Below are positions 3,700-31,898 of a stretch of 64,000 nt of DNA, one piece after another. Below the pieces are notes generated by a model. That model ran no database searches, was not told the origin of the DNA, and was given only the letters and a program-made list of their open reading frames with translations. This stretch comes from Capitulum mitella (lineage: Eukaryota; Arthropoda; Thecostraca; Pollicipedomorpha; Pollicipedidae): assembly GCA_030062745.1 (NCBI GenBank), contig CP099842.1:3844001-3908000 (forward strand), in the 5' to 3' direction. A program made the translations under genes and the position numbers. Within the stretch, counting starts at the first letter, position 1. Every line of letters begins with the position of its first letter.

Positions 3700-4850
3700 C
3701 CGGACTTGAGTTTGTGGGGTAATAGGTTGTGGGTTAATAGTTCGCGATGGCAAAAGCTTTTGTAGGTCAAAAGACTGTCCCACGCAAGTTCGTTTGGTAA
3801 AGTTCGTTCAGAACAAAAGCTCGTCTCGGACAAAAATTGGTCTCGCGTAAGTTCGTCTAGGACAAAAGTTCACCGAGGGCAAAAACTTCTGCAGGAAAGA
3901 GCCTGCCTTGAGCAAATGATTCACGCTCAAATCCGTAAGGGCAATATGTGTATACTCGGAAATCTTGGCAACTGTAAACCGACAGCTGGTGGAATTATGT
4001 CGGTGACTGAGACTGCCCTGATGTCCCAGGGACGGATCAGGCCCAGCTGATCTCATTCCATCCTGTGCACAACCCTTTTTAACCACCAGGCATTGTAGCG
4101 ACCTGCCCACATCGCGGGCGGGTGCCATCAAATGCGATCGTGGTGGTGGCGGTGGGAAAGGTAGAAGTGGGTCCTGGTCTTTGACCCCTCCTTCAGTAGC
4201 CAAGACCTTTCGTTTTTGTGCTAGGACGGCGAAGTGTTCCTTCAGCTCCGGATTTGATCCTGTTTGTCTGCGGTCCCCGCTCCTCCGGCCGTGCGAGTGC
4301 CGGCCGGAGGAGCTGGTTTTCTGGTTAGGACTTTCTGGTTAGGACTTTCCAGCTAGGTCACGGGATGGGCTGGGCGGGCTGGAAAGTCGTCAGTGATCAG
4401 CTGAGCGTGGCTTACTGCAGTCTAGACGTTATATACCTTGAGGTAGTCCCATGGGGGCCCGCTGGGTGCTCGCGTGTGTACCGTGGTTTTGCGTAGGGGC
4501 ATTATGTACTGGGTATATGTATAGGAACTTCTCCTGGGACTCGAATTCTTGTCTTAGACGATCTTTTGCCCAGACGAATTGTTGTCCCAGACGAACGTTT
4601 GTCCAGAACGAACTTCTGCAGGACGAACTTTTGTCCAAGACGAGCTTTTGTCGTGGCGGAACTTCCGCGAGACGAGCGTTTGCCATAGACGAAGTTTAAC
4701 CCCAGACGATCCTTCGTGTGACGAACTTCCGCACGATGAACTTTCCTCCCAGACAAACTTTTGCCGTAGACGAACGTAGCCTGACGACTCGAGCCTGGCG
4801 AACTTTTGCCCGGCGGGCTTCTGCGATACGAACGTTGGCCGTAAAATCAC
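3700..4850. repeat. Two inverted arrays of ~17-bp repeats, possible foldback element
   Basis: From about 4546 to 4840 a degenerate unit of about 17 bp built on GACGAACTTTTGTCC recurs about 16 times. From about 3740 to 3890 the same unit occurs in reverse orientation (for example GTTCGTCTAGGACAAAAG). The two arrays face each other across about 650 bp of unrelated, more GC-rich sequence. This geometry resembles a foldback transposon with repeat-built terminal inverted repeats. No transposase is seen between the arrays and no target duplication was identified. Confidence 0.55.
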
Positions 4851-11042: not shown

Positions 11043-11147
11043 CTAGCTGGAGGGCACCTGCAGCGCCTGCGCGTCGCGGAGGGCGTCGGCGCCGCGGTGC
11101 AGCGTGCAGACCCGCGGGAACCCCAGAGCCAGCAGGCCCTCTGATAG
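11043..11147 (-). CDS. TBCK: TBCK coding exon 13 (C terminus)
   Basis: It encodes residues 811-844, [20 protein letters not shown] through QVPSS, with stop TAG at 11045-11043. The acceptor GTTTGTCCCCAG is strong. The G(F/Y)PR(V/I)C.L.GG-like block matches the TBCK rhodanese end. Confidence 0.92.
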   Translation of the reverse strand, partial: LSEGLLALGFPRVCTLHRGADALRDAQALQVPSS

Positions 11148-14100
11148 CTGGGGACAAACAGGGGCGCCACAGGGTGTGATTTTACTACCGTATACCGAGC
11201 GATTGCCAGAAAACACGCCGCGGCGCTTTGCGGTGACGTCGTCGAATGCTATCGTCAGCAAGATGACACAACCGGACAGTGCTGGTGAGCCTTCACTCCA
11301 CCTGTCAGTCGCACAACCCCGTTTAACCCGCCGTGCGATTCGTGCGCGCGCGAACAAACCGCCCACCGATCGCGAATCCGGCGCGCCGCGGCGGCGCCCG
11401 GCCGGCGGCGGCTGCCGTACCTGCCTGACGGCGGCCGTGTTCCTGCCGCCGACGACGACCATGAGGCGGCCGCGGGCGGCGCGCACGGCGTCGGCGGCCG
11501 GGCCAGGTAGCAGCGAGCCGTCCTCGTCCAGCAGCGAGCCGGGCGGCACGCTCAGCGCGCCCGGAAAACAGCCGCGCTGGAAACTGGACGCCCGGCTCAG
11601 GAAACGTCCGTCCGAAAACAGCGGGGACAGTGGTGGCCAGAATGGCCCGAGGCGCCCTCAACCTCCCCGGAACCGGCGGCCAAGCACAGCAGTGGACAGA
11701 CCGACGTAACCCCGTCCACCTTTTGTTTAATTTCAAGGCCATTACTGGGGCTGGCGTTTCACTACGGCTATGTTAATCGGAGCCCTGCGCTGCTGGTGCG
11801 ATTAAAAACAGGTCTTACAAACTAAATTACATGGCCAGAGAAAAAGCGATGCAACCTGTAACGCACACTAAACTTAGTTTGTCTCGTTCCTTACAGCGTT
11901 CCAGATTCCAACACCAGTATCCCGCAACACCCACACCGCTCCCCCCCCCCCCATCCCCGGTCTGGCCATCCGCAGCCCGCCGCAAAGGATACTCGTCCTG
12001 CGGCCGGACGTCCAGCACGCAGACGCGGTCGGCCGGGCGCGCCCAGCGCAGCAGGTCGGCAGCACCGAGCCGCGGCAGCCGCAGCGCGCGCAGCTCGGCC
12101 AGCGGCAGCGGCGGCCCGTCCAGTGCGGCCGGCTGGGCGGCCCGCTCGGCTGGCGGCGCGTGCTCCCGGTGCAGCGCCGAGCGCGGCGTCAGCGCCTGGA
12201 TCCGCTGCGACTCGGCCACCACCTTCTCCATGTTGATGTCTGGCGGCCGGGACACGTGCGGTTGAGCTGGTCTCGGCTGGCAGGGTGCCCCGCGATAGCG
12301 TACGCGGGATGGGATAGACAGGAGCACATTATGAGTGCGCTGAAGCACATTATGAGACGTGGTATTATCGGGCGAAGTGCGAAAAAACGAAAGAACAGGT
12401 GCGAAAGAAACTGCCTGAATTTCTCCCATTTCGCAACTTTTCATAGGTTTCTGATAAACCAATTCACACATCTTGAACATTCAGTGTTGTTCTGCATACC
12501 AGTTCAAATCTGATACCCTGAGGGATCCGCCGCTGCCGTTGTTCACATCTCTTATATACCGCGGTGACACAGTCCTGAGTACGCACCGGGCATGTCGGAG
12601 AAGAGCAGGATGCATTCGTTGAAGCCGAACTGGAGAAGCCTGTCGCGCAGCTGCTGCAGAATGGCGACGCCCACGCAGAGCGGAAACCCCGAGTCCTCCA
12701 GCAGCAGGGCGTCCCACAGGTGGAAGATCTTGTGTAGCGGGAACACGTCTACCAGTAACGCGTCATTAGCAACGCCGCGAACATCACGACGCGCGCGTTT
12801 ACGTATATATTAGTGTGTTTATTACGGCGCTTTTAACACTTTTCAATCCAATGAAGGAAACCTAGCGCCAGCGAACCTTTCAAAAAAGTGCCGCCCGACT
12901 TATTAACATTGAACGACAGGAAAATACGGTACTGGAATCTGGCAAGAATCAGCCACCGCGATGGCGTAAGAACGTTCTGAGAAGCCGAAGAGACAGTGTC
13001 AGGTCTGGAGAGAGCCAGTCGCAGCACTAACGCGTGAACATGGTGAGGAACCAGGGGATGGCGTAAAGCTCCGGCACGAAGCCGATCTGGCGCAGGTGCT
13101 CGGACAGCGTCGGGTCGACGAAGGCCGTCAGCAGGCTGAACACGGCCAGGTACTCCTGGATCACGGCCGCGTTGTCTTTCAGGAAGAAGTCGTGCAGGTA
13201 CTTGGCGATGAAGGCCGACAGGCTGGCGTACGCCAGGGCTGGAACCGCACGGGCCGGTCAGATGGCCAGCGGTCTGGCAGCCGGCGGCGGCCACTCACCA
13301 ACCAAGGAGACGGAGCGCGCGCCAGGATTTGACCAAGACAACGAGTGGCTGAACGAAATGATCCAGGACTCACCACGCCAGTGATCCGGATCACCACGTA
13401 CGAAACAGGCATCAATATCAGCTGGCACGTTCAGAGACGGACGAGGCGGTCACCTTCGTTGTTGAAGTTGAGGTAGACGAGCGGGGCGGCCAGCGAGTCG
13501 AGGCCCTGCCAGTAGACGTACTGCGGGTGCGTCACCACCCAGGCCTTCAGCACGCGCTGCAGCTTCCTGTGCCCGGCCGGCGACGACAGCAGCTCGTCGT
13601 ACTGATGACACCGCGGAATGTCCACCTCTATCTGCGGAAGCGAGCGCGTCGCTGAGCGTGACAGGACTGTACGTGTCGGCGCAGGGCTGAACGTCCCCCA
13701 GGCAGGGCGAAATGTCCTCAGTCGGTCACAGACATCCAGTATGCGTGGATATCAACTAGAAACATTTCCGCATAAGGGGTATGTCAAACGTAACTGCCGT
13801 TGGGTGGGCACGGCCGTCTGTTGGACATTCCTGCCGGTCTCCGAGTGCGACTGTCTGTCGGACGTACCTGTGGTCGGCGGGCATGACTGTCTGTCGGACA
13901 TACCTGCCGGTCGACCATTATGACCATCTGTCGGACATACCTGCCGGTCGACCATACCGACCGTCTGTCGGACGTACCTGCCGGTCGGTGGGTACGGCCG
14001 TCTGTCGGACGTACCTGCCGGTCGGTGGGTACGGCCGTCTGTCGGACGTACCTGCCGGTCGGTGGGTACGGCCGTCTGTCGGACATACCTGCCGGTCGAC

Positions 14101-17100
14101 CATTATGACCATCTGTCGGACATACCTGCCGGTCGGTGGGTACGGCCGTCTGTCGGACGTACCTGCCGGTCGGTGGGTATGGCCGTCTGTCGGACATACC
14201 TGCCGGTCGACCATGACGACCACCTGTCGGACGTACCTGCCGGTCGGTGGGTATGGCCGTCTGTTTGTCGATGGTATCGTAGCGCCGCTGCAGCAGTCCG
14301 GTGATGCGCAGCAGAGCCGCCCAGCCGTGCGCCCGGTACAGCGGAGGCGTGTCCGTGCGGGCCTCCTCCAGTATCCGCTCCGCCCCGTACGGGTACGCCT
14401 GCGCCGCGGACGAACGCAGCCTGAGCACCCGGTCGTGGTGAGGCTGTCTGAACACGAGCACCCATGTCCAGAATCTTGAGGCAATGCATAAAGGGACGTG
14501 GGGAAGGGGTATGAATACCTCCACACGGTGCGACACATGACAGCCTGCTCCTAACCACTCAGATGCTCAGATCAGAAGTTTTATGTAAAAATTGCCTTTC
14601 AAGTGTTTTTTCTGTTCTTGCAAACAGCTTTATCGGTAACCATATCGGCAGATCGCTATCAGATGGACTATCATCGTGGTCTTGTCATCAAGGTCCCATT
14701 TGTTTCTCGACGACAAAGGGACAGTTTACCGACAAGAAGCTCCCGTCTGATAACTCTGAAACATGCGACGTAAAAAGTGGGCGTTTCTTGTTTTCGCTCA
14801 AACGGCGTGCTGTTCAGGTGAGACAGACACTGAAGGACGTGAACTGAGCACATTCCACGGCCGTCCGTTTCATTTCTCCAAGCCTGTGCGGCTCCTGCAC
14901 TGAGTGATGGAATGGAACGCGATTGGGCTCCAATTAAACCTCATATGGCACCTGCCTAATCACAGTCCACCGATGCAATGATGCGCAAAACGTATCGCGA
15001 ACTGACGAGATTAGATACGTCAGCTTCAACAGGGGCCGATCACTTGAGCGCAGGCCAGTGGCGGGCGAGCCGTAGTGTTTATAGTCGGGACCCGGTCGAC
15101 GCCATGCTGGTCACCGTGTTGCAGTGGATTCTAATCGGTAAGCGTTCACAGCCAGCCTGCAGCGCTGCATAGCCAGCAGAACCGACCATGTACACGCACT
15201 TGACGCATAAGTCTCAAACAGAGCAAGTTTCTCCCGGCTAGGCTTCCCCGATGAACGCGTTGCAGTCGTGTTTCCCCGATTCAGCGGCAGGTGAGGCGGT
15301 CGACACTGCGACCAAATGAGGATTCATCTGAACTCGTCTAACCATTCAATATCTACGTCAAAGGCCTGACGACGCCATTCGCCCTGTCCACGTGCTCACT
15401 ACAGTCCTGTACGTGAATGTCTTTGCATGACCCGGGCGTCTTCCGTCGGCCTGTTCACAGGCGTGGCGGCCGTGCTGGCCCTGGCCTGCATCCAGATCAG
15501 CTCAGCGAGGAAGTCGCGGCACCACACGTTCGGCACGATGCTGAAGCAGTACACGGCGCTCAAGGTGCTGGGCCTGGCCGCCCGCTACATGCGGCGCAGG
15601 TTCGACAACGACACCAAACACTTCATGAAGGTGAGCAAAGCGCCACTGGAGGCAGAGTCACAAGTTTTCGTCATCGGATGTTAGAGATAGAGGAGTTGTA
15701 ACCCCTAAGAATAATAGTTTTAAACGGACAAACAGATCCCTAACGATATAGTGCAAGAGAAAGTAGCAAGAGAATATTAGACTCGATAAAGGGGGATTCC
15801 GATGCGTTGTGAATAATTCATAACTCCAAGGCCATGTCAGTTAGGGTTATCACACGACTGCTCCACTTTTATGTAGACGAAAACAAAGCGCTATAGGAAC
15901 GTTCGCTGTCGCGCTCAGTCCCCTGTCCGATGTACGAAGAGCCTGAGTATAATTCAGTCGAATATGCCGAGTCCCTGTTCGCTGCCGGTGCAAAGCCAGG
16001 ACCAGGACAAAGCCACCCCCATAGACAGGTTACTTGTCCTCACTGTTGACCCTCAGTCTGAGGGGTAGACCCTGATGGTGCAGGTCACCTGTGTCTCTCC
16101 TCTGTCCTCAGTGTCAGGAACAGACCCTGATGGAGTGGGTCACCTGTGTCTCTCCTCTGTCCTCAGTGTCAGGAACAGACCTTGATGGAGCGGGTCACCT
16201 GTGTCTCTCCTCTGTCCTCAGTGTCAGGAGCAGACCCTGATGGAGCAGGTCACCTGTGTCTCCCCTGTCCCCAGTGTCAGGAACAGACCCTGATGGAGCG
16301 GGTCACCTGTGTCTCCCCTCTGTCCCCAGTGTCAGGAACAGACCCTGATGGAGCGGGTCACCTGTCTCCCCTCTGTCCCCAGTGTCAGGAACAGACCCTG
16401 ATGGTGCAGGTCACCCGTGTCTCTTCTCTGACCTCAGTGTCAGGAACAGACCCTGATGGAGCGGGTCACCTGTGTCTCTCCTCTGTCCCCAGTGTCAGGA
16501 GCAGACCCTGATGGAGCGGGTCACCTGTGTCTCTCCTCTGTCCCCAGTGTCAGGAGCAGAACCTGATGGAGCGGGTCACCTGTGTCTCTTCTCTGTCCCC
16601 AGTGTCAGGAGCAGACCCTGATGGAGCGGGTCACCTGTGTCTCTTCTCTATCCCCAGTGTCAGGAGAAGACCCTGATGGAGCGGGTCACCTGTGTCTCTT
16701 CTCTATCCCCAGTGTCAGGAGCAGACCCTGATGGAGCGGGTCACCTGTGTCTCTCCTCTGTCCTCAGTGTCAGCTGATGGAGCGGCTCACCTGTGTCTCT
16801 CCTTTGTCCTCAGTGTCAGGAGAAGACCCTGATGGAGCGGGTCACCTGTGTCTCTCCTCTGTCCCCAGTGTCAGGAGCAGACCCTGATGGAGCGGGTCAC
16901 CTGTGTCTCTCCTCTGTCCCCAGTGTCAGGAGCAGAACCTGATGGAGCGGGTCACCTGTGTCTCTTCTCTGTCCCCAGTGTCAGGAGCAGACCCTGATGG
17001 AGCGGGTCACCTGTGTCTCTTCTCTATCCCCAGTGTCAGGAGCAGACCCTGATGGAGCGGGTCACCTGTGTCTCTTCTCTATCCCCAGTGTCAGGAGCAG

Positions 17101-20100
17101 ACCCTGATGGAGCGGGTCACCTGTGTCTCTCCTCTGTCCTCAGTGTCAGCTGATGGAGCGGCTCACCTGTGTCTCTCCTCTGTCCTCAGTGTCAGGAACA
17201 GACCCTGATGGAGCGGGTCACCTGTGTCTCTCCTCTGTCCTCAGTGTCAGCTGATGGAGCGGCTCACCTGTGTCTCTCCTTTGTCCTCAGTGTCAGGAGA
17301 AGACCCTGATGGAGCGGGTCACGGCGGGGCGCCAGACGGCGTACGGACGCGACCACGGCTTCGAGCGGGTCGACAGCCTGGCTGAGTTCCGCACCACGCA
17401 GCCGGTCACCGAGTACGGCCACTACGCCGATTACGTCCAGCGGCTGGCGGCCGGCGAGACGGGCGTGCTCTTCCCGGACCGGCTGCGCTCGCTCGCCTGC
17501 ACCTCCGGCACGTCCGGCGCCAGCAAGCTGATGCCGGTCAGCCAGAGCCTGGTGCTCAACCTGCTGAGCGGCGTGCTGGTGCTGTGGGAGCGGCAGCTGG
17601 CCGCCTTCCCGGGCGCCGGCCGGCTGCAGCGCCAGATGCGGCCGGTGGTGGCGCCGCGCTGGCGGTACACGGCCGGCGGCGTGCCGATCGGGCCGGCGTC
17701 CGTGGCGCCGCCCGGCCAGCGCGACGGTCGCGAGCACGCGCAGTTCCTGTACAGCGCGCCGCCGGCGGCCGGCCACATCGCGTCCGAGCCGGCCGCCGTG
17801 TACGTGCACCTGCTGTTCGCGCTGCGCGACCGCCAGCTGGGCGCCATCGAGGCCAACTTCGCGTCGTTCGTGCACGCCGTGTTCGCGCAGCTGGAGCGCG
17901 ACTGGCCGCGCCTGCTGCGCGACCTGGCCGCCGGCCGGCTCGGCGACGACGTGGACGTGCCGGCCGACGTGCGCGCCGCCTGCGACGCGGCGCTGCAGCC
18001 GGACGCCGCCCGCGCCGCCGAGCTGCGCGCCGTGTTCGCCGCCGGCTTCCGGGACGTGGCGCGCCGCGTCTGGCCGCACCTCAACTTCATCACGACCGTC
18101 ACCGGCGGCGCGATGGAGCTGTACGCGCGGCGGCTGCGCGAGCGCTACACGGGCCAGGTGCCGCTCTACAGCGCCATGTACGCCGCCACCGAGGGCCTGC
18201 TCGGCGTCAACCTGTGGCCCGAGCGGCAGCCGCCGGCGTACGTGCTCCACCCGCGCGCCATGCTGTTCGAGTTCCTGGAGGAGGGCGGCGACGGCCGGCC
18301 GCTGCTGGCCTCCGAGGTGCGCGCCGGCGGCGTGTACGAGCTGGTGGTGACCACACGCGCCGGCTTCTTCCGGTTCCGGCTCGGCGACGTCGTCCGCGTG
18401 GCCTCCTTCTACAACAATGCGCCCGTGGTGGAGTTCATGTACAGGTAAAGACGGCCACCTGTCGTATGCAGACTGATTTACTAGCCCCTGTGAACCCGTC
18501 ACTTGGCTCTTGGAAAACGGACCAGTCATGCTTGGAAAAGAACACGCAACATTCCGGGAATACCACAGATGCGAACTAATCGCGAGTAGTTATTAACTGT
18601 TCCCCCAATTTGTCTTGGCGCATTATGTCATTCAGCCCTTGGTGTTTTCAAAATATGCCCAACGCGTGAGCCACGCACGCATTGGCTTGCGGACAGAATG
18701 TGAAATGTACCCACAGCTTAACTGCCGCGTCAATATGTCCAATCAGCGGAAGATGAGGCGGGCAGACTGCTTTTCCGCCGCCGGAAGGACGTTCGGCTGC
18801 AAGATGGTCCTACTGCCATCCCATGCCACGTCCTCCTGCCAGCCTTGCGGCCGCTGTCCGACAGGAAGGGCCAGCTGCTGGACGTCCACTCGGAGAAGAT
18901 GTCGGAGTCGGCGCTGTACGCGGCGCTGCTGGAGGCGGCCGCCGGCTGGCGCGCCGCCCTGGTCGACTACACCACCGCCGAGAGCGTGCTGCTGTCGGAG
19001 CCGGCCGACGGGCCGCTGCACTACCTCGTCTTCCTCGAGCTGGACGGGCCGGCCCTGAGCGCCGCTGAGGCCGAGCAGGTGAGGAGAGCCACCAGCCCTG
19101 AGCGCCGCCGAGGTCGAGCAGGTGAGGGAGAGCCACTAGCCCTGAGCGCCGCCGAGGTCGAGCAGGTGAGGAGAGCCACTAGCCCTGAGCGCCGCCGAGG
19201 TCGAGCAGGTGGGGAGAACCACTAGCCCTGAGCGCCGCCGAGGCCGAGCAGGTGAGGGAGTAACAGTAGGGAGCGGCGAAGCCGGGCAGATGAGGGAGGA
19301 GTAGCAGGGAGCGGCGAGGCCGAGCAGGCGAGGGAGGAGCAGGAGGGAGCGGCGAGGCCGGGCAGGTGTGGGAGGAGCAATAGTGAGCGGCGAGGCCGGG
19401 CAGGTGTGGGAGGAGCAATAGGGAGCGACGAGGTGGAGCAGGTGAGGGGGGAGCAGAAGGGAGCGGCGAAGCCGGGCAGATGAGGGAGGAGTAGCTGGAA
19501 GCGGCGAGGCCGGGCAGGTGTGGGAGGAGCAGGAAGGAGCGGCGAGGCCGGGCAGGTGAGGGAGGAGCAGGAGGGAGCGGCGAGGCGGCCAACCGGGACG
19601 TCACTCCTTCGACCCTTCGTAGCCGTTGGTTCTTACTCCGAAAATCTGCTGGATACCTTCATGTGCGTTAGGCGCGTCTTCAGCTTCATTCAGGCAGCTC
19701 TCAGTTCCAGCTTGCTCTTGTGCCCGACACCGGGCCAGGCCGAGCTAGGTCAGGTCAGGCCACGCCTACGTCAGGTCACGGTCCTGACTGGGGCGAATTA
19801 CCCACGTCCGTGCGGGAGCGCTCCAGGCCCGGAAACAGAACTCAACAACGTAACGGTAACGATCCGTCAGCATCTAAACGGAGTGAACTGAGTCAGGCCA
19901 CACCGTCAGGCTCTGGTCCGTGCTGTGCTCTGCTGTAGCATCGCAGGGATTGTGCAATTAAGGGCTTAGCATTTGTTGCGGTGGCCGGATCAGGTTATCG
20001 TCCAATCGACAACCATCTGAACGGCGCGGCAGGAAAACCAGCCAGACCAGAACTCTGTAGGCATCCCACTTCACCTCCAATTGCCCCTCCGTAACGGCAA

Positions 20101-23100: not shown

Positions 23101-26100
23101 GAAGCTGCTTTGACCGGGCCGGAAGAGGCTCCTTCGTCAAAAGGACAGAGAAAAAGAAGAACTGAGGATCCGTTGAACAACTTGTTGAAGACAGGACTGC
23201 TAGTGTACTGACATAAAACCCGAAGAAGTCAGCTGAAGATGATTCCGTGTATTACTGAATCCGTCAACTGAAACCAGACTGATATAACTGTTTGCATCAG
23301 TTGGCTGGGGATGCATGTACAGCGTGTCCCCCCAAAAATGTGACAATTTTCTTAATAACGGATGTAGTTTTAAAGATAAACAAGTGATTTTTTTCACGTA
23401 GTAATACATATCCATGATTTTTGTTCTCGAAACGTTCATTAGTGCCAGAGTTATGAAGCTGATGACGCTGGGGCTCACAATCGAGGAAAAGGCATTTTGT
23501 GTTGAAAAATACGCAACAAACAAATTTTCCCAACACACCCGTTTGGATTTTGACGCTGTTTCGGCCTTAAAAGACGCGATGCCTCTGACAATCAATTTGC
23601 CGTTGAACGCACAAATTCGGAGTTCATGGAACGGTACATTAGCTGAGCGCTTCCCGAGCGAGGCTACTCACTCAGGAAGACCGAAATCCTAAAAAAAAAT
23701 ACTTCAGCCGACATCGCAGCCGTCGCGTCCCTTAGTCCTCGCTGCCAAGAACTCGAGACGTCCGAGAATGGATTGTCTAACATTCTAATGAAGGGCTTGA
23801 AGTTACACCTATACCATATAGGTGTGTTCCATGAACTCGATCCCCAACACAAGGAGAAACGGATGGCGATGTGTCAGTGGTTGACTGACAAACTCGAGCT
23901 GGAACCAAACTTCCCTGACGATCTCTGGTTCACAGATGAGGCGTACATTTTGCTCATTGGCCAGGTCAGTTCAAAAAGCAACATATACTGGGGATCGTGC
24001 TTCAAAGTGAACCTTGCGATCCGTGCAATCCCCATCGCTCAGTGCGTGAACGTTGTGAATGTTTCGTTTTGTTTCGTTTTGCCAAACGCATCTGGATGTG
24101 TTTGAGCCGTCGAGGCCAACATTTAGCGCACTTACTGAAATAGCCATAAAATCAATACAAAACGTCTTATCGTTATAATAGTTGGTGGGCTAAAGATGCA
24201 GAACATTACAAATTCTGTGCGAAAATATGACGTTCCTAACTCAATAGACAACAAAGTTACTGCCAAAGGTGAGTGTCGCATTTTTTGGGGGACACCCTGT
24301 ACATGCATCAGTCAGCTGCAGAAGGTGACACGTACCTGAAGTAGCCGGCTGAAGAGGGTGATCCGGTGCAGCTGGTACTCGATGTCAGCCTCCCTGATCA
24401 CCAGAGGAAGCCGGGCCGTGTCTCGCAGCTCCATCTGACTCTGGCTGTGGAGGACTGGGCCGGACCTGAGGGAATTATACGGCGTCCTGTCATCAGCGGC
24501 TGCATCCGGCTCTGACTGTGGAGAACAGGGCCATACCTGACGGAATAATAATACAGCATTCTGTTACAGCTGCTCCACCCGGCCCTGACTGTGCAGATCA
24601 TGGGCGGGGCTGAGGAAATAATAACGCAGCGTCCTGTTATCGGTTCCACCTGGCTCCGGCTGTCCAGAACGGAGCCGGAACTGAGGGTATAATAATACAG
24701 CGCCTTGTTAGCGCTGCTCCACCTGGCTCTGACTGCGCAGAACTTGGACAAAACTGAGGCAATGATACAGCCTCCTGCCAGTTTCATTTGGCAGTGAATG
24801 CAGAACATGGGCGGAGCTGAGGGCACAACAGAGCGTTCCGGTGCCGTTGCCCCGTCTCTAACCGACCGGATGGGACCGACACTCAGGGAGTAACACGGCG
24901 TCCTGTTATCGGCTCCACCCGAGTCGCCGTGCAGGGTCGGGCCGGAAGCGAGGCAATGATATCACTTCCTGCTATCAGCCCTAACGTCACCAGTGCTGCA
25001 GCCCTGCAGCTAACGCCCCATTCGAATGTGAAGTACCCAGCCGGATCCCGGCAACATAAAGCGTACGGTGACCAGCTCCTGTTGCCGGTCACGTCACCGC
25101 CGGGCGCTGCAGGATCGACCCGGGCGGGGCTGACACGCCCGGCCAACACGAGTTCAAGGATCCCGAGAGACCGAGCCCAGGACGGCGAGACAGACGGAAG
25201 AGACAGGGAAAGGTGGTCGGCCCGAACGCGTGGACGGGGAGTACGGCACGGGAGGCGTCAGGTGGGTGCGCCGCATACCGACAGACAGAACAGCAGTGAG
25301 TGGAAGATCACCACGAGAAGATAAAATGAATCTAAGAAAAAACGGTCCAGTTTTCAAGAAGTGCGTCCTTCACGGTATTAAGACCAGCTTTGCATGATTT
25401 GCATGCAATCGGACCCTTCACTCACAGTGCAGGAACCAAAATCCAACAATGAGTCACCGGGAATGCAATGAACACGTCAGGCCGCTGCCCAGTCTGTCTA
25501 GACATTCAGATAATCCGGCGCGGCTGCGGGTGTTTGGCGGCTCTCACGCCTTCTCCAGCAAGCTCTCACCCCTTCTCCAGCAAGCTATCACCCCCTCTAC
25601 AGCGGGTTCTCACCACTTTCTCAGCAGGCTCTCGCCGCTTCTGCTTCAGCTTCCGCAGGCTCTCACCGCTTCTCCAGCAGGCTCTCACCGCTCCCCAAAC
25701 AGACTCTCACTGTCTCTCCGGCAGGCTCTCACCACTTCCCCACAGGCTCTCCCCGCCTCCCCGTAGGCTCTCACCACTTCTCCAACAGGCTCTCACCGCT
25801 CCCCAAATAGGCTCTCACTGTCTCTCCGCAAGGCTCTCACCGCTTCCCACACAGGCTCTCACCGCCTCCCCGCAGGCCATTGTTGGAAAAATGATCATAT
25901 TCTGGTGTCAAGGAGAACCAAAAAAAGTACAATCCAAGAAAAATTTTGTACTCCAAAATGGTCATTTGGCCCACCCCAAAAGACATGGGTATTCCTATTC
26001 AATCAGAATTTGAAGTTGCCCAGCGTCCCCCCCCCGTTGATGGTTTACCATCCATACTCAGCTGCTGAAGTACACTCTAAACCCACGGCCAGCCGCCTTC

Positions 26101-29100
26101 CGACCCCCTCCCCCAGGCCAACGACTCTGCTGACCTACCATGTAGACCCAGGAAACTGATTTGCCCCCCCAACGGATCCTCTGGATCCGCCCCTGCTGGC
26201 CAGATATGCTTGCAAAGCACCTAGTTAGTCCCTGTCTCTCACATAAACGCATGATATTTTATACTCCAAAAGAGAGAAAAACCAGGTTTCTAACACTCCC
26301 GCAGGCTCTCACCACTCCTCCGGCAGGTTCTCACTGCTCCCCAAGAAGGCTCTCGCCGTCTCTCCGCAGGCTCTCACCGCTTCTCGAGGAGCGGATAGAA
26401 GGCGGCCGGCGAGACGTCCCGCAGCCTCTTCAGCAGCGGCTCCAGCGGCAGCGGCACCACGCTCGGGTCGTACAGCGTGTCCCGGTCGCGGCGCACTCCG
26501 AACGGCTCGCCCTCCAGCGTCACCACGCTGAAACGACCCAGGGCTGTGACGGTGGCACGGGACGGGCGGCCCGCTGGAACCGGGACGGGTCGATGTCTCG
26601 CTGGGAGAGGATCCTGCCCGCGCTGAGGCCGGAAACACGGAACGCCAAAACGCGCTGACGATCATTGCGCAATCAGCGGGGGATTAAACAGGTCCCAATC
26701 GAACAAGGTAGTCAACAAGATAAAACAGTCCACACAGCGGCAATACCTCCTCTTGAGCTGACCCAATATACCATTATCAACCGGAAGCGTAGAGGCGAGC
26801 GGCGCTGCCGTGAAACCGCTAGAAATGAATGACTACAGGAACAAGGAAGCTACGGTACCATGCGGGGAATCACATGTGATTCAACGAGATCATCACCACT
26901 GTGAAGCGAAATAGCCTACGCTTCTGAGGATTACGCTTCATACCTCACATGTGATTCAACGAGATCATCACCACTGTGAAACGTTATAGCCTACGCTTCT
27001 GAGGATTACGCTCCATACCCCAAACCTTTACTGTACGAGCTGGTTCCACCGATATAAACGTAACGTCCATACGACGTTTAGCCCAACTTACCATCGCCAG
27101 CGTTACAACTCACAGTTTTCCAGCCCACCAGAAACTGCCGAGAGTGCGCGACGTTTCCACTCTCGGAGGTGTCACTCCCCTGCAGACGCTCACTTGGGCA
27201 CGGTGAGGATCGGTGGCTTGGCCTTGACGCGGCCCTGGTTCCTGAGCTCGGTCTCCAAATCGCCGCCGGCTAGCCGCCAGAGGTGGTACACCTCGAGCAA
27301 GGGCCGGGTGCGCAGGTGGGTCTCGACGGCGGCGGCGCGGCCGGGCGGTGGCGGCGGCGGCAGCGGCGGCGGCGCAGCCGGCTCGGCGCCGCCGTCCGGC
27401 GGGGCCAGCGTCAGCGGGAACGGTTGCACGAGGCGGCCGGGCGGCGGCGGCGCGCGGCCCGCCAGCGCCCCGTGCTGCAGCAGCTCGGCCGCGGCCGGCC
27501 GCCGGCCGGGGTCCGGAGTCAGGCAGAGCCGGATCAGATCCGCCAGGTCGGCCGGCAGCGCCTGCCGAGGGCGCGGCGGTCACAGGGCGGCCGGTCGACG
27601 GGGCAGACGGTCAGCCCCCGCCGGGGGAATCGCGGCCATAACACAGCGCAACGGAGGTGAGCGTGCTTCACAGCTTGCCGGGAACAGCCTCTAGCACGCA
27701 GAGCCACTAGGACGTAACAAACGAAGCGGGTGTCGAAAGGCGAGTTCCGCAGCGTTTATCGCTGCCGCGCAGGACGACATTCAGAGCTCGGAGTTGAGGG
27801 GTCGGAGCCCGCGGGGAGGGCGACCGTCGGAGGCCGAACCTCCGCGAGCCGGCGTCAGCGCCGCCCGCTCGGCAGACGTTCAGATGTCCCGCTTAGGTCG
27901 CATACGGCTCTCTGACGTAGGGGACTTTGGTCGCCCGTTGGACGTGGCATTAAAAAAAACGGGATAAGTCAACAGATCACACCCTACTAGCAGAAACGCA
28001 GAAGCCCAATGATTAGAGTATAATCGACATCGAAATGTGGTCGCGTGCCCAGGGTGTACAAAGGTCAATGTGAGATGCGCAGTCACCGCCAATACAGCAG
28101 TCGCCAGAGTCATACAGCACCATTCAAAGGGCCAACAAAAACTGCATGGACAGTCTGCTCCACATGTGAAGCAGCGCTCCAGAAAAACCTAGCAGACACC
28201 GCCGAAAAGAGCAGAGGCATGGTATTACTTAGGGTGGTTCAAACGTATCCGACACTCACAGCTGCAGTACTTTTCAAAACACATATGGACCGCCTCATGA
28301 CCGAAAACTTCCGCTGGAACACATCAAAGACGGTCTCGTGCATCAAACGGTCCGAAAAGTGCTCCCATCAAACGGTAATATCAGCTGCCCTGCAGTGATT
28401 CATCACCAAAAGTTCGCAGGGGTCACTGGCGAATCTTAAACAGTCCGCTATTCCACGTAGTTCGCACTGATATGGGACGAATATAAGTCTATATAAGACG
28501 AGAATAAATCTATAACCTCGACAGGCCCAATTCGCCATTCATTCTCAGGCGCTTCCATCTGCCTTTTCCACTTCCACTTCCACTGCCGCTCGTCAAAATC
28601 ACGAGAGCGCCTCGCCTCACGACCGCAACACCTCCGAACTCCCCTCTCTAACCTCCGTTAACCGTTCCATTTCCGGCCCATTTCTTCTACATTCTGGCGC
28701 CACTTCACCCGAAACGTCCAGCTCAGGGTCCTACTGTAAGAACATTACATTAAGTCCATCCAACACATTACCAGCTCACAGACCACACCACGGCTCACCT
28801 GAAACAAACGTGACCCAAGTCACAATCACAAACCGCGCTCTCGCCCCTCCACCAGAGTACGGATACCCGGCTCCGACTCACCTCAAGCGCCATCCAACCC
28901 GTCAAACCCGGCTCCACCTCACAGAGAGCGCAATCCAGACCGTCAAACCCAGCTCCAGCTCACCTCGAGCGCCATCCAACCCGTCAAACCCGGCTCCACC
29001 TCACAGAGAGCGCAATCCAGACCGTCAAACCCAGCTCCAGCTCACCTCGAGCGCCATCCAACCCGTCAAACCCGGCTCCACCTCACAGAGAGCGCAATCC

Positions 29101-31898
29101 AGACCGTCAAACCCAGCTCCAGCTCACCCCGAGCGCAATCCAGACCGTCAAACCCAGCTCCAGCTCACCTCGAGCGCCATCCAGCCCGTCAAACCCGGCT
29201 CCACCTCACAGAGAGCGCAATCCAGACCGTCAAACCCAGCTCCAGCTCACCTCGAGCGCCATTCAACCCGTCAAACCCGGCTCCACCTCACAGAGAGCGC
29301 AATCCAGACCGTCAAACCCGGCTCCAGCTCACCTCGAGCGCGCGCCGGGCGCCGGCGTCGTCGGCCAGCTCGGCCAGCACGTCGCCGCTGGCCATGAGCC
29401 GGAAGACGCGGGTGACCACGGCGGCCACGTCGCGGTCGGCCCAGAGCGGAGCGGCCAGCGCGGCGCGCGCCAGCACCATGCCGGCCGACCAGACGTCGCT
29501 CTTGGCGCCGCTGCGGAACTCCGCCGTCAGGCCCGAGGCCAGCACCTCCGGCGCCAGGTAGCCCACATCCCTGCCGGACGGACGACGGACAGGGTCAGCA
29601 GCGGCAGAGACCAGCTCAGAGCGACAGGCCACCCACGTCCCTGCCGGACGGACGACGGACAGGGTCAGCAGCGGCAGAGACCAGCTCAGAGTGCCAGGTG
29701 GCCCACGTCCCTGCCGCACGGACGACGGACAAGGTCAGCGACGGCAGACAGCCCAGAGCAACAGGCCACCCACGTCCCTGCCGGAAGGACGACGGACAGG
29801 GTCAGCGGCGGCAGAGACCAGCTCAGAGCGCCAGGTGGCCCACGTCCCTGCCGAGCGGAAAGGGTCAGGGACAGCAGAGACTAGTTCAGTAGAAGCTCAG
29901 AAGGGCCACGTCCCTGGCGGACGGACGACGGATAGGGTCAGCGGCAGCAGAGACCAGCTCAAAGCGACAGGTGGTCCATGTCCCTGCAGAGCGGACAGGG
30001 TCAGGGACAGCAGAGACCAGTTCAGCAGGTCAGAGCTGTATCCCTGACGGGAGGGCCACGTCTCTGACGAAAGGACGACAAACAGGGCCACGGACGACAG
30101 AGACAAGCCCAGGGGGGTCAGAAGTCACGTCCATGCCGACCGGACGGACAAGGTCAGCGATGGTAGACCGCTCAGAGCGACAGGCCACCGACGTCCCTGC
30201 CGAGCGGACGACGGACAGGGCCAGGGACGACAGAGGCCAGCTCAGCAGAGGCTCAGAGGGGCCACGTCCCTGACCAATGGACGACCGCAGACATTGCCGG
30301 GGTTGGCAGATACCAGGGCAGACACCAGCTCAGAGCGGGACGTGGGGATGTCCCTCGCCAACGGACGGGGAGGATCACAAACAGCAGGAGGCATCTGACA
30401 ACGCCCAATCTGGATCAACGGGCGCCTGACCGCAAAGGCACAGTATGCGAAGATCGACATTCCCTTGAGTCCGAAGACGGCAACAGAGATGAACACCTCT
30501 GCCAAAGCGGACCACAGCGCCCTCCCCCAGACCGCCAAGCAAGATCGGCAAAAACGGATAAGAATTTTCACAATAACGCAGGGCATGACGAACAGACATT
30601 GCGATGTGATACAGTGTAAAGAGAAAGCAGGTACATCTTCCGCGAAGACACTTCGAACGTTATCACGGTCCGATTCCTGACGTAATGAGGTGCACAAAGA
30701 TAATCCCGATACGACATTCTCATGAACATGATTATGAAAGTGATGATCCGACAGCACCAAGCCCCTTTCTTATCGTCCTGAGTAATCCTCGAAGGAAGAT
30801 ATCACGCAAACAACCGCCCTGACACTCCGACGAATGCGTCACTTGACCCGCAGTGTTTTAGTCACGGCCTCGGAAGCCATACGTCAAAAGACGAAAGTCA
30901 AAGGTCTTCATGACGTGCCGACACCACACTCGAACGACGCCCAGGATTCCCGACCTGTACGTCAGGTCTCAGCCGGACGGCGCCGCCAGCCAGCCGAGAC
31001 CTGACCCACCGGCCGCCGCCGGACACCCCGGACCGAGCTGCAGGCACAGCCAGTCCCGACCCGCCCGTCGCCTCACCCGATCGGGAACGAGACCAGCTCG
31101 CCGTCGCGGGTCATGTAGTAGAGTCCGTACTGCGCCAGCCGCACGGCGCCGGCCGCGTCCAGGCGCACCGTGCGCGCCGTCAGGTTCCGCACCACCACGT
31201 GCCGCTCGTGCAGGAAGTGCAGCGCCTGCAGCAGGCCCCAGGCCAGCGCCGGCACGTCCACGGGCGAGCCCTCGGCGAGGACGTCCGCCAGCGAGCGCGG
31301 GAAGTGTTCGGACACCACGAGCAGCCGTTCTGTCGGCGGCGGCGCGGAGGTCAGCCGCGCCGGGGCAGGCTGCGGCGGCGGCCGACACGGGGGAGGGGCG
31401 GCCAGCGACGAGCTGCTCAGAAAACCGTTCGGTGGCGGGAGAATTACGACAACGATGGGTCAGCAGAACAACGTCGTCGCTTAGCTAATGTGTGAAACAT
31501 TACATGCATCTTTGAAGAAAACCAATATGCATTCCAAACTTGGTGAGAAAAGTGCACAAGGATAAGCCATACAAGGACGAGGTGTTAATTCAACGGAGTA
31601 AACAGAGTTGTTTAACAGAGCATTACACCACATGAGATGGAACAAAAGACGCGTAATCTGCGAATTTGACATTTCCATGAAAGCACGATACATTTTATCA
31701 CTTACCGTGTTTTCCCCGAGCAATGTCCACATACTGACATATGTTGGGGTGCCTGAGAGTTTTCAGATACTGAAATTCACCAAGAATTTGTATGGAATTA
31801 GGAGTCAATGGCAATCCATTCATTCCACAGGACTCATTGGGGTGAGCTGAGGCAAAGAAGGTACAAACCCCCAGTCCAGCATCACCCATTGACTCCAT
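11043..31898 (-). CDS. TBCK: TBC domain-containing protein kinase-like (TBCK), 13 coding exons
   Basis: The spliced model of 13 exons is phase-compatible at every junction and sums to 2535 nt (844 residues plus stop; the human protein is about 893). Residues 1-230 form a kinase-like domain in which the HRD position reads VVRN (about 110-113) and DFG reads QYG (about 131-133), so it is a pseudokinase. The activation-segment APE is kept (155-157). Residues about 438-675 are the TBC Rab-GAP domain, with the arginine finger in IEVDIPR (R498) and the glutamine finger in YWQGLD (Q533). Residues about 740-844 are rhodanese-like with no catalytic Cys. In vertebrates TBCK belongs to the FERRY complex, a Rab5 effector on early endosomes that binds mRNA, and it affects mTOR signalling; that role is inferred here by homology. 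Four of its introns contain splice-site-bearing repeat arrays, and GHDC is nested in intron 6. Confidence 0.95.
11421..11583 (-). CDS. TBCK: TBCK coding exon 12
   Basis: It encodes residues 756-810 of the rhodanese-like domain: [18 protein letters not shown], then [16 protein letters not shown], where active rhodaneses carry a Cys in the loop. The acceptor GGGCGTCCAG was chosen because it restores DVRPQDDFQRG in phase; an upstream AG would add four residues. The donor is CAG-GTACGG. Confidence 0.88.
11993..12239 (-). CDS. TBCK: TBCK coding exon 11
   Basis: It encodes residues 674-756: [20 protein letters not shown], an Ala/Pro-rich linker, and the first rhodanese strand [11 protein letters not shown]. 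The acceptor is GGCCGCCAG and the donor GACGA-GTATCC (phase 2). A 12-base C run lies about 40 bp past the donor. Confidence 0.92.
12587..12748 (-). CDS. TBCK: TBCK coding exon 10
   Basis: It encodes residues 621-673: [46 protein letters not shown], the C-terminal TBC helices. The acceptor is CTGGTAG and the donor CCCG-GTGCGT. Confidence 0.95.
13032..13238 (-). CDS. TBCK: TBCK coding exon 9
   Basis: It encodes residues 551-620: [52 protein letters not shown]. This is the central part of the TBC domain. The donor ACGC-GTTAGT (phase 1) is needed to rebuild His620 with the next exon. Confidence 0.95.
13454..13631 (-). CDS. TBCK: TBCK coding exon 8 (TBC catalytic fingers)
   Basis: It encodes residues 492-550: [20 protein letters not shown] with the Arg finger, then [13 protein letters not shown] with the Gln finger, ending YLNFNNE. 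The acceptor is CTTCCGCAG and the donor GAAG-GTGACC (phase 1). Confidence 0.95.
13785..14236 (-). repeat. 37-bp array copying TBCK exon 7 donor (intron 7)
   Basis: About 12-13 units of 37 bp fill most of TBCK intron 7 and abut exon 7. In coding orientation each unit contains the end of the exon (CCCACCGACCGGCAG) followed by GTACGTCC or GTATGTCC. The unit thus duplicates roughly 28 exonic bases plus the donor. Junction-proximal copies at 14198, 14161, 14124, 14087 and 14050 (position of the AC on the plus strand) are evenly spaced. Because 37 is not a multiple of 3, the array is open in several frames. Confidence 0.95.
14237..14398 (-). CDS. TBCK: TBCK coding exon 7
   Basis: It encodes residues 438-491, [14 protein letters not shown] through [17 protein letters not shown], the start of the TBC domain. 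Both junctions are phase 0. The donor CGGCAG-GTACGTCC and about 28 preceding exonic bases are repeated through the following intron in 37-bp units. The first donor after the conserved TDRQ is chosen because IEVDIPR of exon 8 follows TDRQ directly in vertebrate TBCK. Confidence 0.94.
15427..15630 (+). CDS. GHDC: GHDC exon 1
   Basis: The 68 codons run from ATG 15427 to FMK before the donor AAG-GTGAGC. The N terminus is hydrophobic and is followed by [19 protein letters not shown] and [17 protein letters not shown], matching the region before the GH3 domain. A possible acceptor (CTCACTACAG, ending near 15402) suggests an upstream 5' UTR exon, which was not located. Confidence 0.82.
15427..20507 (+). 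CDS. GHDC: GH3 domain-containing protein (GHDC-like), 4 exons, nested in TBCK
   Basis: Exons 15427-15630, 17291-18444, 18865-19078 and 20256-20507 join in phase to 1824 nt, giving 607 residues. Residues about 7-24 ([18 protein letters not shown]) form a signal peptide or membrane anchor. GH3 signatures are present: [16 protein letters not shown] (ATP-binding loop, about 138-153), [10 protein letters not shown] (about 364-373), [20 protein letters not shown] (about 419-438), then [13 protein letters not shown] and [12 protein letters not shown] near the C terminus. GH3 enzymes adenylate small carboxylic acids and transfer them to amino acids in plants; the animal member has no established substrate. 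The gene lies antisense within TBCK intron 6. Introns 1 and 3 carry arrays duplicating its own splice sites. Confidence 0.9.
16055..17322 (+). repeat. 55-bp array copying GHDC exon 2 acceptor (intron 1)
   Basis: About 23 units start at GTGTCAG positions 16111, 16166, 16221, 16274, 16329, 16382, 16437, 16492 and on to 17290, mostly 55 bp apart with 46- or 53-bp deletion variants. Each unit has a pyrimidine tract, CCCAG or CTCAG, and then about 32 bases of exon-2-like sequence (TGTCAGGAGCAGACCCTGAT). The final unit is the real intron-exon junction. A 376-bp higher-order duplication of six to seven units is visible (16492-16867 against 16868-17243). Confidence 0.97.
17291..18444 (+). CDS. GHDC: GHDC exon 2 (main GH3 domain)
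   Basis: The exon opens with [20 protein letters not shown] after the last of about 23 repeated acceptors (CCTTTGTCCTCAG) and ends at FMYR before AG-GTAAAG (phase 2). It holds all three GH3 signature regions. Very high GC3 keeps other frames open as shadows. Confidence 0.95.
18865..19078 (+). CDS. GHDC: GHDC exon 3
   Basis: It encodes [20 protein letters not shown] through [15 protein letters not shown]. The acceptor CTGTCCGACAG supplies the third base of Arg; the donor is GAGCAG-GTGAGG (phase 0). The last 27 exonic bases and the donor recur tandemly downstream. Confidence 0.92.
19052..19590 (+). repeat. 43-bp array copying GHDC exon 3 donor, plus derived ~37-bp repeats
   Basis: Donor GT dinucleotides at 19079, 19122, 19166, 19209 and 19252 are each preceded by a copy of the exon end (CTGAGCGCCGCCGAGG, then CGAGCAG). 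From about 19262 to 19590 a more diverged form, GAGCGGCGAGGCCGGGCAGG followed by GTGTGGGAGGAG, continues about eight more times. The array sits wholly on the intron side of exon 3. Confidence 0.95.
20256..20507 (+). CDS. GHDC: GHDC exon 4 (C terminus)
   Basis: It encodes [20 protein letters not shown] and on to a Gly/Ala-rich tail with stop TAG at 20505. The acceptor CTTCGCCGGCAG keeps phase 0; an alternative acceptor (GTCCCCAG, ending at 20216 or nearby) would not be needed by homology. No clear polyadenylation signal was found close downstream. Confidence 0.9.
   Translation: MDAALCAQHEVYRSFRVKGSIGAARPVCLRPGAFERLRCHLLADSDTSPLQFKVPRVLRREELVRHLLDERVGSGGPAAGGQE
21373..22557 (+). mobile_element. 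Degenerate non-LTR retrotransposon, 3' RT region and tail
   Basis: Several plus frames in succession carry conserved blocks of an arthropod-type non-LTR reverse transcriptase: [20 protein letters not shown], then [48 protein letters not shown], and a C-terminal portion with [27 protein letters not shown] and FKRAVERRL. Frameshifts and stops make it inactive. It ends in an AAATAAATAATAAATAAATA tail at about 22534-22556, typical of such elements. The 5' end was not determined. It lies in TBCK intron 6, downstream of GHDC. Confidence 0.85.
23320..24299 (+). mobile_element. Tc1/mariner-like DNA transposon, decayed
   Basis: Terminal inverted repeats are near-perfect over about 27 bp: left CAGCGTGTCCCCCCAAAAAT, right (reverse complement) CAGGGTGTCCCCCAAAAAAT. 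TA dinucleotides at 23318 and 24300 are the target duplication. Inside, plus-strand frames give transposase fragments: [20 protein letters not shown] near the N terminus, then [20 protein letters not shown] and [20 protein letters not shown] with the second catalytic Asp block, and NIYWGS. Stops and gaps mean no intact protein. It sits 36 bp beyond the TBCK exon 6 donor. Confidence 0.9.
24336..24444 (-). CDS. TBCK: TBCK coding exon 6
   Basis: It encodes residues 402-437, with [20 protein letters not shown] strongly conserved. The donor is CAG-GTACGT. The acceptor is placed at CTCCACAG (exon starts at 24444); the nearby GCCAGAG also fits the phase and would shorten the exon by six bases. The region upstream of the exon is a 72-bp repeat array carrying copies of this acceptor. 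Confidence 0.88.
24439..24950 (-). repeat. 72-bp array copying TBCK exon 6 acceptor (intron 5, 3' end)
   Basis: Units begin at 24439 (real junction), 24510, 24583, 24654 and 24727 with spacing of 71-73 bp; two or three more degenerate copies follow to about 24950. In coding orientation each unit has ACAG followed by TCAGAGCC(A/G)GGTGGAGC, a near copy of the exon start CCAGAGTCAGATGGAGC. Each also carries the pyrimidine-poor upstream segment, so the whole acceptor region is multiplied. Confidence 0.88.
25540..26386 (-). repeat. ~25-bp array copying TBCK exon 5 donor (intron 5, 5' end), interrupted
   Basis: In coding orientation the unit is about GGAGAAGCGGTGAGAGCCTG, a copy of the exon 5 end plus donor. 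Three to four units adjoin the exon (26297-26386), and about fifteen more lie at 25540-25880. Between them is a 415-bp non-repeat segment (25881-26296), which looks inserted. Some units have lost the GT. Confidence 0.9.
25881..26296. mobile_element. Probable insertion splitting the exon 5 donor array
   Basis: This non-repeat block interrupts an otherwise continuous array. It includes a run of nine Cs and, near 26167-26195, CGGATCCTCTGGATCCGCCC, whose reverse complement resembles terminal sequences of some hAT-type MITEs. Clear paired ends and a target duplication were not found, so the element type is uncertain. Confidence 0.4.
26378..26527 (-). CDS. TBCK: TBCK coding exon 5
   Basis: It encodes residues 352-400 plus split codons: [20 protein letters not shown] through [12 protein letters not shown]. 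The acceptor is GTTTCAG; the donor GAGAAGCG-GTGAGAG is the seed of the downstream ~25-bp array. FYPLLE is conserved in TBCK. Confidence 0.9.
26871..27020. repeat. 75-bp direct repeat, two copies
   Basis: The copies start at 26871 and 26946 and share CACATGTGATTCAACGAGAT and CATCACCACTGTGAA with few mismatches. They lie inside TBCK intron 4 and do not touch a splice site, unlike the other intronic arrays. Confidence 0.9.
27194..27561 (-). CDS. TBCK: TBCK coding exon 4
   Basis: It encodes residues 229-351. [20 protein letters not shown] closes the kinase-like lobe, then comes an Ala/Pro-rich linker ([10 protein letters not shown]), then [16 protein letters not shown] and KPPILTVP, which match the conserved segment after the kinase domain in TBCK. 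The acceptor is CTCGGCAG and the donor is CCCAA-GTGAGC (phase 2). Confidence 0.93.
28870..29341 (-). repeat. 41-bp array copying TBCK exon 3 donor (intron 3)
   Basis: About eleven 41-bp units alternate between two variants, giving an 82-bp dimer period. One variant carries, in coding orientation, GCGCTCGAG-GTGAGCTGGAG, identical to the exon 3 end and donor; the other has mutated that site (CTCTCTGTGAGG). The unit adjoining the exon is the true junction. The rest of intron 3, 27562-28870, shows no gene. Confidence 0.95.
29333..29570 (-). CDS. TBCK: TBCK coding exon 3, flanked by splice-site arrays
   Basis: It encodes residues 150-228: [14 protein letters not shown] (APE motif), [11 protein letters not shown], and the helical C lobe ending ARRALE. 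The acceptor CCGGCAG and the donor GAG-GTGAGC are both duplicated many times in the adjacent introns, upstream in about 70-bp units and downstream in 41-bp units. Phases fit exons 2 and 4. Confidence 0.93.
29551..30360 (-). repeat. ~70-bp array copying TBCK exon 3 acceptor (intron 2)
   Basis: GTCCCTGCC positions (plus strand) at about 29566, 29636, 29706, 29773, 29843, 29909 and 29979 mark units of 66-70 bp; four or five more degenerate ones follow to 30360. In coding orientation each has CCGGCAG followed by GGACGTGGGCCACCTGGCGC, against GGATGTGGGCTACCTGGCGC in the exon. About 20 exonic bases and the acceptor are therefore duplicated. Confidence 0.95.
31077..31329 (-). CDS. TBCK: TBCK coding exon 2
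   Basis: This exon encodes residues 65-149 of the pseudokinase core, including [20 protein letters not shown] in place of HRD, and LAQYGLYYM in place of DFG. It starts after CCGACAG with two bases completing Glu65 and ends before GTGAGG within a Gly codon. The high GC3 contrasts with exon 1, only 376 bp away. Confidence 0.93.

What the first reader, a model, noticed from the sequence alone, without database searches (positions are those of the whole stretch)
13785..30360. Seven intronic minisatellites whose repeat unit contains the adjacent splice site and exon edge
In TBCK and its nested neighbour GHDC, seven tandem arrays abut exons, and each unit copies the real splice junction: 8-32 exonic bases, the GT or AG, and flanking intron. 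Periods differ (25, 37, 41, 43, 55, 70, 72 bp) and the sequences are unrelated, so this is not one spreading repeat family but a recurrent process acting at exon ends. Every array lies on the intron side and in direct orientation. Four multiply donors and three multiply acceptors. Of eight introns longer than 500 bp, six carry at least one such array; the exceptions are the 666-bp intron 4 and the 9.9-kb intron 6 that hosts GHDC. Chance placement of minisatellites would rarely cross a junction this precisely. Possible explanations are slippage or repair initiated at exon boundaries, selection purging expansion on the exonic side, or a benefit from decoy splice sites. I do not know of a described element or mechanism matching this.
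Basis: seen in the sequence. Interest (0 to 1): 0.93.

Follow-up and report, generated by a model that had tools for sequence, protein, structure and literature searches.

The report
Exon-edge minisatellites in barnacle introns
In a barnacle genome, unrelated short tandem repeats keep starting at the edges of exons and copying the real splice site over and over into the intron, which suggests that exon edges repeatedly seed or preserve such repeats.

Summary
Confirmed, sharpened and partly tested elsewhere. The window is from a thoracican barnacle (477-Mb assembly, species unnamed). TBCK hosts GHDC in a 9.9-kb intron. Homologues fix the junctions. Seven arrays (units about 21-73 bp, mutually unrelated) start at 7 of 32 junctions, four donors and three acceptors, with about 8-38 exonic bases per unit, on the intron side only. 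Uniform placement predicts 0.4-1 of 7 (P 1e-9 to 5e-7); GC-matched seeding 2.1 of 7 (P 9e-5); very short ancestral introns would weaken this further. Prospective test: in nine myosin stretches chosen by protein family (71 kb), 4 of 4 arrays sit at a splice junction by inspection (3 of 3 in the automated test, P 0.012). In 200 kb of systematically sampled DNA, 4 of 19 testable arrays touch a predicted exon edge against 0.51 expected (P 0.001); by eye two are clear splice junctions and one probable. The real junction takes part in array turnover: internal copies match it perfectly in three arrays. Splice motifs are not better conserved than the rest of the unit, so decoy benefit is unsupported. 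Best reading: exon-anchored tandem duplication under one-sided selection. Isolated human precedents exist; the recurrence looks new. RNA use and cause are untested.

The parts
11048..31898 (-). TBCK gene, 13 coding exons: 31898-31706, 31329-31077, 29570-29333, 27561-27194, 26527-26378, 24465-24336, 14398-14237, 13631-13454, 13238-13032, 12748-12587, 12239-11993, 11595-11421, 11147-11048
   Evidence: In-frame GT-AG model, 854 codons without a stop; 80-83% identity to Amphibalanus and Pollicipes TBCK over the first 10 exons; kinase and TBC Pfam domains
15104..20507 (+). GHDC gene nested in the 9.9-kb TBCK intron; exons 15104-15137, 15461-15630, 17291-18444, 18865-19078, 20256-20507
   Evidence: In-frame model; 72% identity to Amphibalanus P0001; GH3 Pfam domains. 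The first exon is a guess.
13794..14264 (-). 37-bp array at the donor of TBCK exon 14398-14237; 12 sites counting the real one; about 28 exonic bases per unit
   Evidence: exonic part encodes TAIPTDRQ, identical in both barnacle relatives, TDRQ in 8 of 8 aligned proteins
24428..25010 (-). 71-73-bp array at the acceptor of TBCK exon 24465-24336; TRF 4.4 copies to 24743, 8 decaying sites counting the real one; about 38 exonic bases per unit; junction corrected here
25540..26385 (-). 21-22-bp array at the donor of TBCK exon 26527-26378; 19 sites counting the real one, split by a 421-bp unrelated insertion at 25878-26298; 8 exonic bases per unit
   Evidence: joining the blocks is inferred from shared unit sequence
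28865..29341 (-). 41-bp array at the donor of TBCK exon 29570-29333; 12 sites counting the real one, alternating subtypes (82-bp dimers); 9 exonic bases per unit
29551..30360 (-). 70-bp array at the acceptor of TBCK exon 29570-29333; 11 sites counting the real one, decaying outward; about 20 exonic bases per unit
   Evidence: the 50 intronic bases before the real acceptor equal those of the neighbouring copy
16067..17322 (+). 55-bp array at the acceptor of GHDC exon 17291-18444; 23 sites counting the real one; 32 exonic bases per unit; 376-bp higher-order repeat
19052..19586 (+). 43-bp array changing to 38-bp units at the donor of GHDC exon 18865-19078; about 27 exonic bases in the 43-bp unit

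Best explanation
These are exon-anchored minisatellites. (1) A short tandem duplication arises across, or right at, an exon edge. GC-rich exons favour this; an extra fragility of the edge is inferred. (2) Duplications inside exons are mostly removed by coding selection. One that straddles the edge leaves the exon-proximal splice site and the reading frame unchanged, so it survives as extra intron (frame and orientation shown; use in RNA inferred). (3) The array turns over by unequal exchange or gene conversion in which the real junction copy takes part (shown by sequence). Because coding and splicing selection hold that copy fixed, it acts as a permanent master copy that keeps feeding the array, while distal copies and arrays without an anchor decay (inferred; weak polarity seen). 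The copied splice sites are mostly passive passengers.
For: At the locus, 7 of 7 intronic arrays with TRF score >=100 and >=3 copies straddle a junction. Independent loci: 4 of 4 such arrays in nine myosin stretches lie at junctions by inspection, and 4 of 19 testable arrays in 200 kb touch a predicted exon edge, 0.51 expected. The exonic part encodes residues shared with other barnacles, so the exon is the source. The real junction belongs to its array: an internal copy matches it over 37/37, 55/55 and 22/22 bases in three arrays and 40/41 in a fourth; in another the adjacent 50 intronic bases are identical. In GHDC the exon codon AAG, where Amphibalanus has Q, is shared with 2 of 22 intronic copies; 17 have CAG and 3 lack the site. 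Nearer copies resemble the exon more: 6 of 7 correlations negative, combined permutation p 0.016, one array below 0.05 alone. No excess conservation of splice motifs.
Against: GC matching removes much of the excess at the locus, and the tests at the other loci were not GC-matched. If ancestral introns were 60-100 bp, 7 of 7 would have P 0.07-0.007. Polarity is absent in two arrays, the 22-bp donor and the GHDC acceptor. Of the outside junction arrays, two (L003 and L030) show no clear exonic bases in the unit, so there the anchor is the splice site alone. No transcript data, and no relative's DNA.
Confidence: 0.6

Rival explanations
1. Homology run-off at exon edges. In hyperdiverse barnacles the two haplotypes align in exons but hardly in introns. 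Repair copying that runs out of an exon loses its template, falls back, re-invades the exon edge and copies it again, writing tandem copies on the intron side. A specific mutational form of the best explanation.
For: Fits intron-side-only growth, both splice-site types, variable unit length and an anchor at the edge. Balanus improvisus has about 5.5% coding and about 20% fourfold-site diversity (PMC8270832, passages).
Against: Diversity of this species is unknown; Semibalanus shows about 1% in the North Atlantic (PMC7826171, passages). Anchors can be as short as 8 bases or none. No haplotype data here.
Confidence: 0.17
2. Ordinary minisatellites placed by GC content, intron size and purifying selection alone, with no special process at exon edges.
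For: Exon GC 71.5%, arrays 62.7%, other intron 52.3%; GC-matched seeding gives 2.1 of 7. Short ancestral introns would raise it further. Minisatellites are common in this genome: 21 in 200 kb.
Against: P 9e-5 even when GC-matched. The GC-rich 46-64 kb part of the window has one TRF locus of score >=100 and >=3 copies. Non-array intron remaining ranges from 162 to 1303 bp (inputs). Other genes show the same placement.
Confidence: 0.15
3. Arrays are kept because extra splice sites buffer or regulate splicing (decoys, alternative exon ends).
For: 0.9% of 869 background intronic GTs reach the median true-donor score, against 10, 5 and 5 non-real array sites in three donor arrays; the fourth (22-bp) array has none. 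Human IFI6 uses repeat copies as donors (PMC4526556, passage).
Against: Splice motifs and dinucleotides are not better conserved than the rest of the unit (p 0.41, 0.67). Most units are not multiples of 3, so decoy use would usually shift the frame. In the L025 array the visible intronic copies carry GC instead of GT.
Confidence: 0.06
4. The introns themselves were born from the tandem arrays, as proposed for some human introns.
For: Repeats at exon-intron boundaries can make introns in human duplicated genes (PMC2812944, passages).
Against: Each array repeats only one end of its intron; the opposite ends show no copies in the 36-edge scan unless a separate array sits there.
Confidence: 0.02

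Closest known systems
Human IFI6 (6-16/G1P3) minisatellite supplying multiple splice donor sites (Turri et al. 1995; title and one descriptive sentence seen, paper not held)
   Same: A minisatellite at an exon end whose units carry the splice donor
   Different: One case with copies used as donors in RNA; here many unrelated arrays, donors and acceptors, in several genes, with use untested
Variable internal tandem repeats at exon-intron boundaries in human segmental duplications (PMC2812944, passages)
   Same: Minisatellite-size units (about 30 bp on average) at exon-intron boundaries
   Different: Recent paralogues where repeats can make new introns; here housekeeping-type genes in which the array lengthens one end of an existing intron
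Introns from tandem arrays (Zhuo et al. 2007; seen only as a reference, not held)
   Same: Tandem duplication meets splice sites
   Different: There both splice sites come from the repeat (recalled); here only one end of each intron is repeated

Membership tests
Minisatellite | Head-to-tail units of about 10-100 bp, several copies | tested here: met
   TRF units about 21-73 bp, about 4-23 copies
Splice-site-bearing minisatellite (IFI6 type) | Unit contains the real splice site and exon edge | tested here: met
   Seven arrays, junctions supported by homologues; also L005, L022, L025, L028
Splice-site-bearing minisatellite (IFI6 type) | Repeat copies used as splice sites in RNA | not testable with these tools
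   No transcript data; copies in three of four donor arrays score like true donors
Array-born introns | Both splice sites derive from the same tandem unit | tested here: not met
   Only one end of each intron belongs to a given array
One dispersed repeat family | Shared unit sequence between arrays | tested here: not met
   0 hits outside own array at E<=0.01 for 7 unit consensuses in the window; the 41-bp array found only at its own place in the genome (a search that skips simple repeats)

The most novel reading that the evidence does not exclude
In this barnacle exon edges are genome-wide hot spots of tandem duplication. Coding and splicing selection fix one copy, which keeps writing copies of itself into the intron, so that introns grow from their splice sites inward and store a record of past exon-edge sequence that can still exchange with the exon.
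Probability: 0.42. Interest if true: 0.86.

Novelty: new variant of a known kind. Interest (0 to 1): 0.71.

Why it matters
If general, it would tie splice-site position to where minisatellites are born or survive, give a concrete route for intron growth, and supply genes with arrays of spare splice sites whose number can vary between individuals. The GHDC case also shows coding bases at an exon edge exchanging with intronic copies.

Tried and rejected
Selection for splice-site copies: unit-wide conservation, not supported. Hairpin-driven expansion: of 7 units folded as DNA, only the 37-bp dimer folds better than shuffles (z -3.06); the other six range from -0.56 to +2.05. One dispersed family: rejected. 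GC alone: lowers but does not remove the excess. My first acceptor for exon 24336 (at 24438) was wrong and was corrected from homologues; the protein searches used the version 9 residues too short. The PDB search listed kinase and RabGAP/TBC chains among the 60 shown of 984. In the listings (titles and abstract starts only) I saw no report of recurrent exon-edge arrays; the library lacks most subscription journals. Passages of PMC9582164 had no bearing.

Caveats on counts. One search selected copies by similarity to the junction core; one search is the unbiased version. One search's Fisher test left out one short block (79 bp next to the 26378 donor) and treated the 43- and 38-bp GHDC blocks as separate. 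One search left the 9.9-kb intron out. One search is ungapped with a 0.55 identity floor, so its farthest hits may be background. One search's counts included the real site; I quote them less one. The exon predictor was trained on TBCK and GHDC; it found 14 of those 18 exons and one other stretch in the window, the Sprouty gene. One search dropped three arrays as overlapping a predicted exon by more than 45 bases: L025, where the predictor overshot the real exon end so that the array is a junction array by inspection; L006 5279-5621, a coding repeat; and L010. It counted L006 5725-5983 (edge of that coding repeat) and L011 (array just after the stop codon of a carboxylesterase exon) as touching although neither is a splice junction, and missed L005, whose exon was not predicted. 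One search, a looser flank test, gave 5 of 21 arrays with a coding flank against 7.5% of random positions (two of the five are the L006 coding repeats) and 4 of 4 against 28% for myosins; its controls and those are not GC-matched.

Because of them I raised the novel-case probability from 0.27 to 0.42, interest from 0.62 to 0.71 and the best-explanation confidence from 0.58 to 0.60, and lowered the GC-only rival from 0.17 to 0.15.

Full report
What the window is. The locus holds TBCK on the minus strand and GHDC, on the plus strand, nested in its 9.9-kb intron. GHDC is 72% identical to Amphibalanus amphitrite and TBCK is 83% identical to Pollicipes and 80% to Amphibalanus, so the source is a thoracican barnacle. 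The best Amphibalanus hits for both genes come from contigs of the same length, 373,136 bp, so the nesting is probably conserved.

Junctions. All 13 TBCK coding exons join without a stop, as do the five GHDC exons, and 16 of 16 introns are GT-AG. Alignment with eight TBCK proteins from other animals, two of them barnacles, corrected one boundary: the exon I first started at 24438 starts at 24465.

The arrays. Seven arrays sit at seven of 32 junctions: four donors (14237, 26378, 29333, GHDC 19078) and three acceptors (24465, 29570, GHDC 17291). Each unit contains about 8-38 exonic bases, the splice site and flanking intron. Copies lie on the intron side only. Unit consensuses do not match each other or other parts of the window.

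Chance at the locus. Seeds placed uniformly in the present introns give 0.40 of 7 at a junction, P(7/7) 7.5e-10; introns shortened by their arrays give 1.05 and 4.5e-7; whole arrays slid along the intron give 0.77 and 3.3e-8. Counting two interior two-copy repeats as failures gives 5.6e-8, 8.9e-6 and 1.1e-6 for at least 7 of 9. Seeds restricted to windows as GC-rich as the unit give 2.1 of 7, P 9e-5. Ancestral introns of 100 or 60 bp would give P 0.007 or 0.07. The locus was picked by a reader, so these values are descriptive.

Other loci. The genome search answered late, which allowed a limited prospective test. (a) Twenty systematic 10-kb stretches hold 21 arrays with score >=100, >=3 copies and period 15-100, one per 9.5 kb, denser than the rest of the window (one in about 43 kb). 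With exons predicted from codon use, 4 of 19 testable arrays touch an exon edge, 0.51 expected, P 0.0011. By eye two are splice junctions: L005, a 63-bp unit ending TCTCGCAG and running into an exon with the start of an SH3 domain (E 0.009, below the Pfam cut-off), and L003, a 41-bp unit ending at the CAG before a Cdc6_C exon (E 4.5e-6). L013, a donor, is probable. L006 holds repeats in or at the end of a coding exon with units of 84 and 42 bp, multiples of three, and L011 follows a stop codon. The others show no exon that I could detect. (b) Nine stretches (71 kb) were chosen only because they match the myosin head family. They hold four such arrays, all at junctions by inspection: L022 donor after GYPS (45 bp, about 15 exonic bases), L025 donor after ARDVTR (79 bp, about 38 exonic bases), L028 acceptor before EEYV (39 bp, about 12 exonic bases) and L030 donor (45 bp, starting at the GT, no clear exonic bases). 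The automated test used three of them, 3 of 3 against 0.77 expected, P 0.012. Combining the two P values by hand (Fisher) gives about 1.6e-4. These nulls are not GC-matched.

Direction and turnover. The exonic part of the units encodes residues shared with other barnacles and in part other animals, so exon edges were copied into introns. The real junction belongs to its array. In the 37-bp array the second intronic copy equals the real junction over 37 of 37 bases while the first is another subtype; in the 55-bp array a copy 477 bp upstream is identical over 55 of 55; in the 22-bp array one is identical over 22 of 22; in the 41-bp array subtypes alternate in register with the exon (40 of 41); at the 29570 acceptor the adjacent 50 intronic bases equal those of the neighbour. 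In GHDC the exon codon AAG is shared with two of 22 intronic copies, 17 have CAG, the residue of Amphibalanus, and three lack the site. Exchange between exon edge and intron copies is visible; its direction is open there.

Selection. With whole units aligned without choosing the junction in advance, splice motifs and dinucleotides are no better conserved than other positions (combined p 0.41 and 0.67). Copies in three of four donor arrays still score like true donors, as expected of fairly young copies. Identity to the real junction falls with distance in 6 of 7 arrays, combined p 0.016; one array is below 0.05 alone and two are flat.

Mechanism. The simplest account is tandem duplication at an exon edge, tolerated because the exon-proximal splice site and frame are unchanged, followed by turnover in which a copy held fixed by selection keeps re-seeding the array. 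Why edges are hit so often is open: GC content contributes, survival of anchored arrays may contribute, and homology run-off in a hyperdiverse genome is an attractive but untested idea (PMC8270832, passages; against it, about 1% diversity in Semibalanus, PMC7826171, passages).

Known relatives. The IFI6 minisatellite (PMC4526556 passage) and human tandem repeats at exon-intron boundaries (PMC2812944 passages) show that the kind exists. Recurrence at donors and acceptors of several ordinary genes in one genome goes beyond both.

Noticed in passing
23310-24309: Inverted repeats (33 of 36 bases matching) bound about 1 kb inside the host intron; it looks like a decayed mariner-type transposon (type recalled, not searched).
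   Followed up: partly
25878-26298: A 421-bp insertion, single-copy in the window, splits the 22-bp array; the array motif CCCGCAGGC flanks both sides.
   Followed up: partly
49888-50667: Minus-strand reading frame with a Sprouty domain (PF05210, E 7.7e-32).
   Followed up: partly
3799-3871 and 4542-4697: Degenerate 17-bp repeats (GACGAACTTTTGTCC-like) in opposite orientations; two 64-66-bp arrays of similar sequence lie in L019 3466-4503.
   Followed up: no
5942-6520: Two candidate exons of an unidentified plus-strand gene, with plausible splice sites.
   Followed up: no
17300-17302: GHDC exon codon AAG differs from Amphibalanus and most array copies (CAG) and is shared with intronic copies 16658 and 16814.
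   Followed up: yes
L006 5279-5983: Tandem repeats with units of 84 and 42 bp, both multiples of three, in or at the end of a predicted coding exon: repeats kept inside exons here are frame-compatible.
   Followed up: partly
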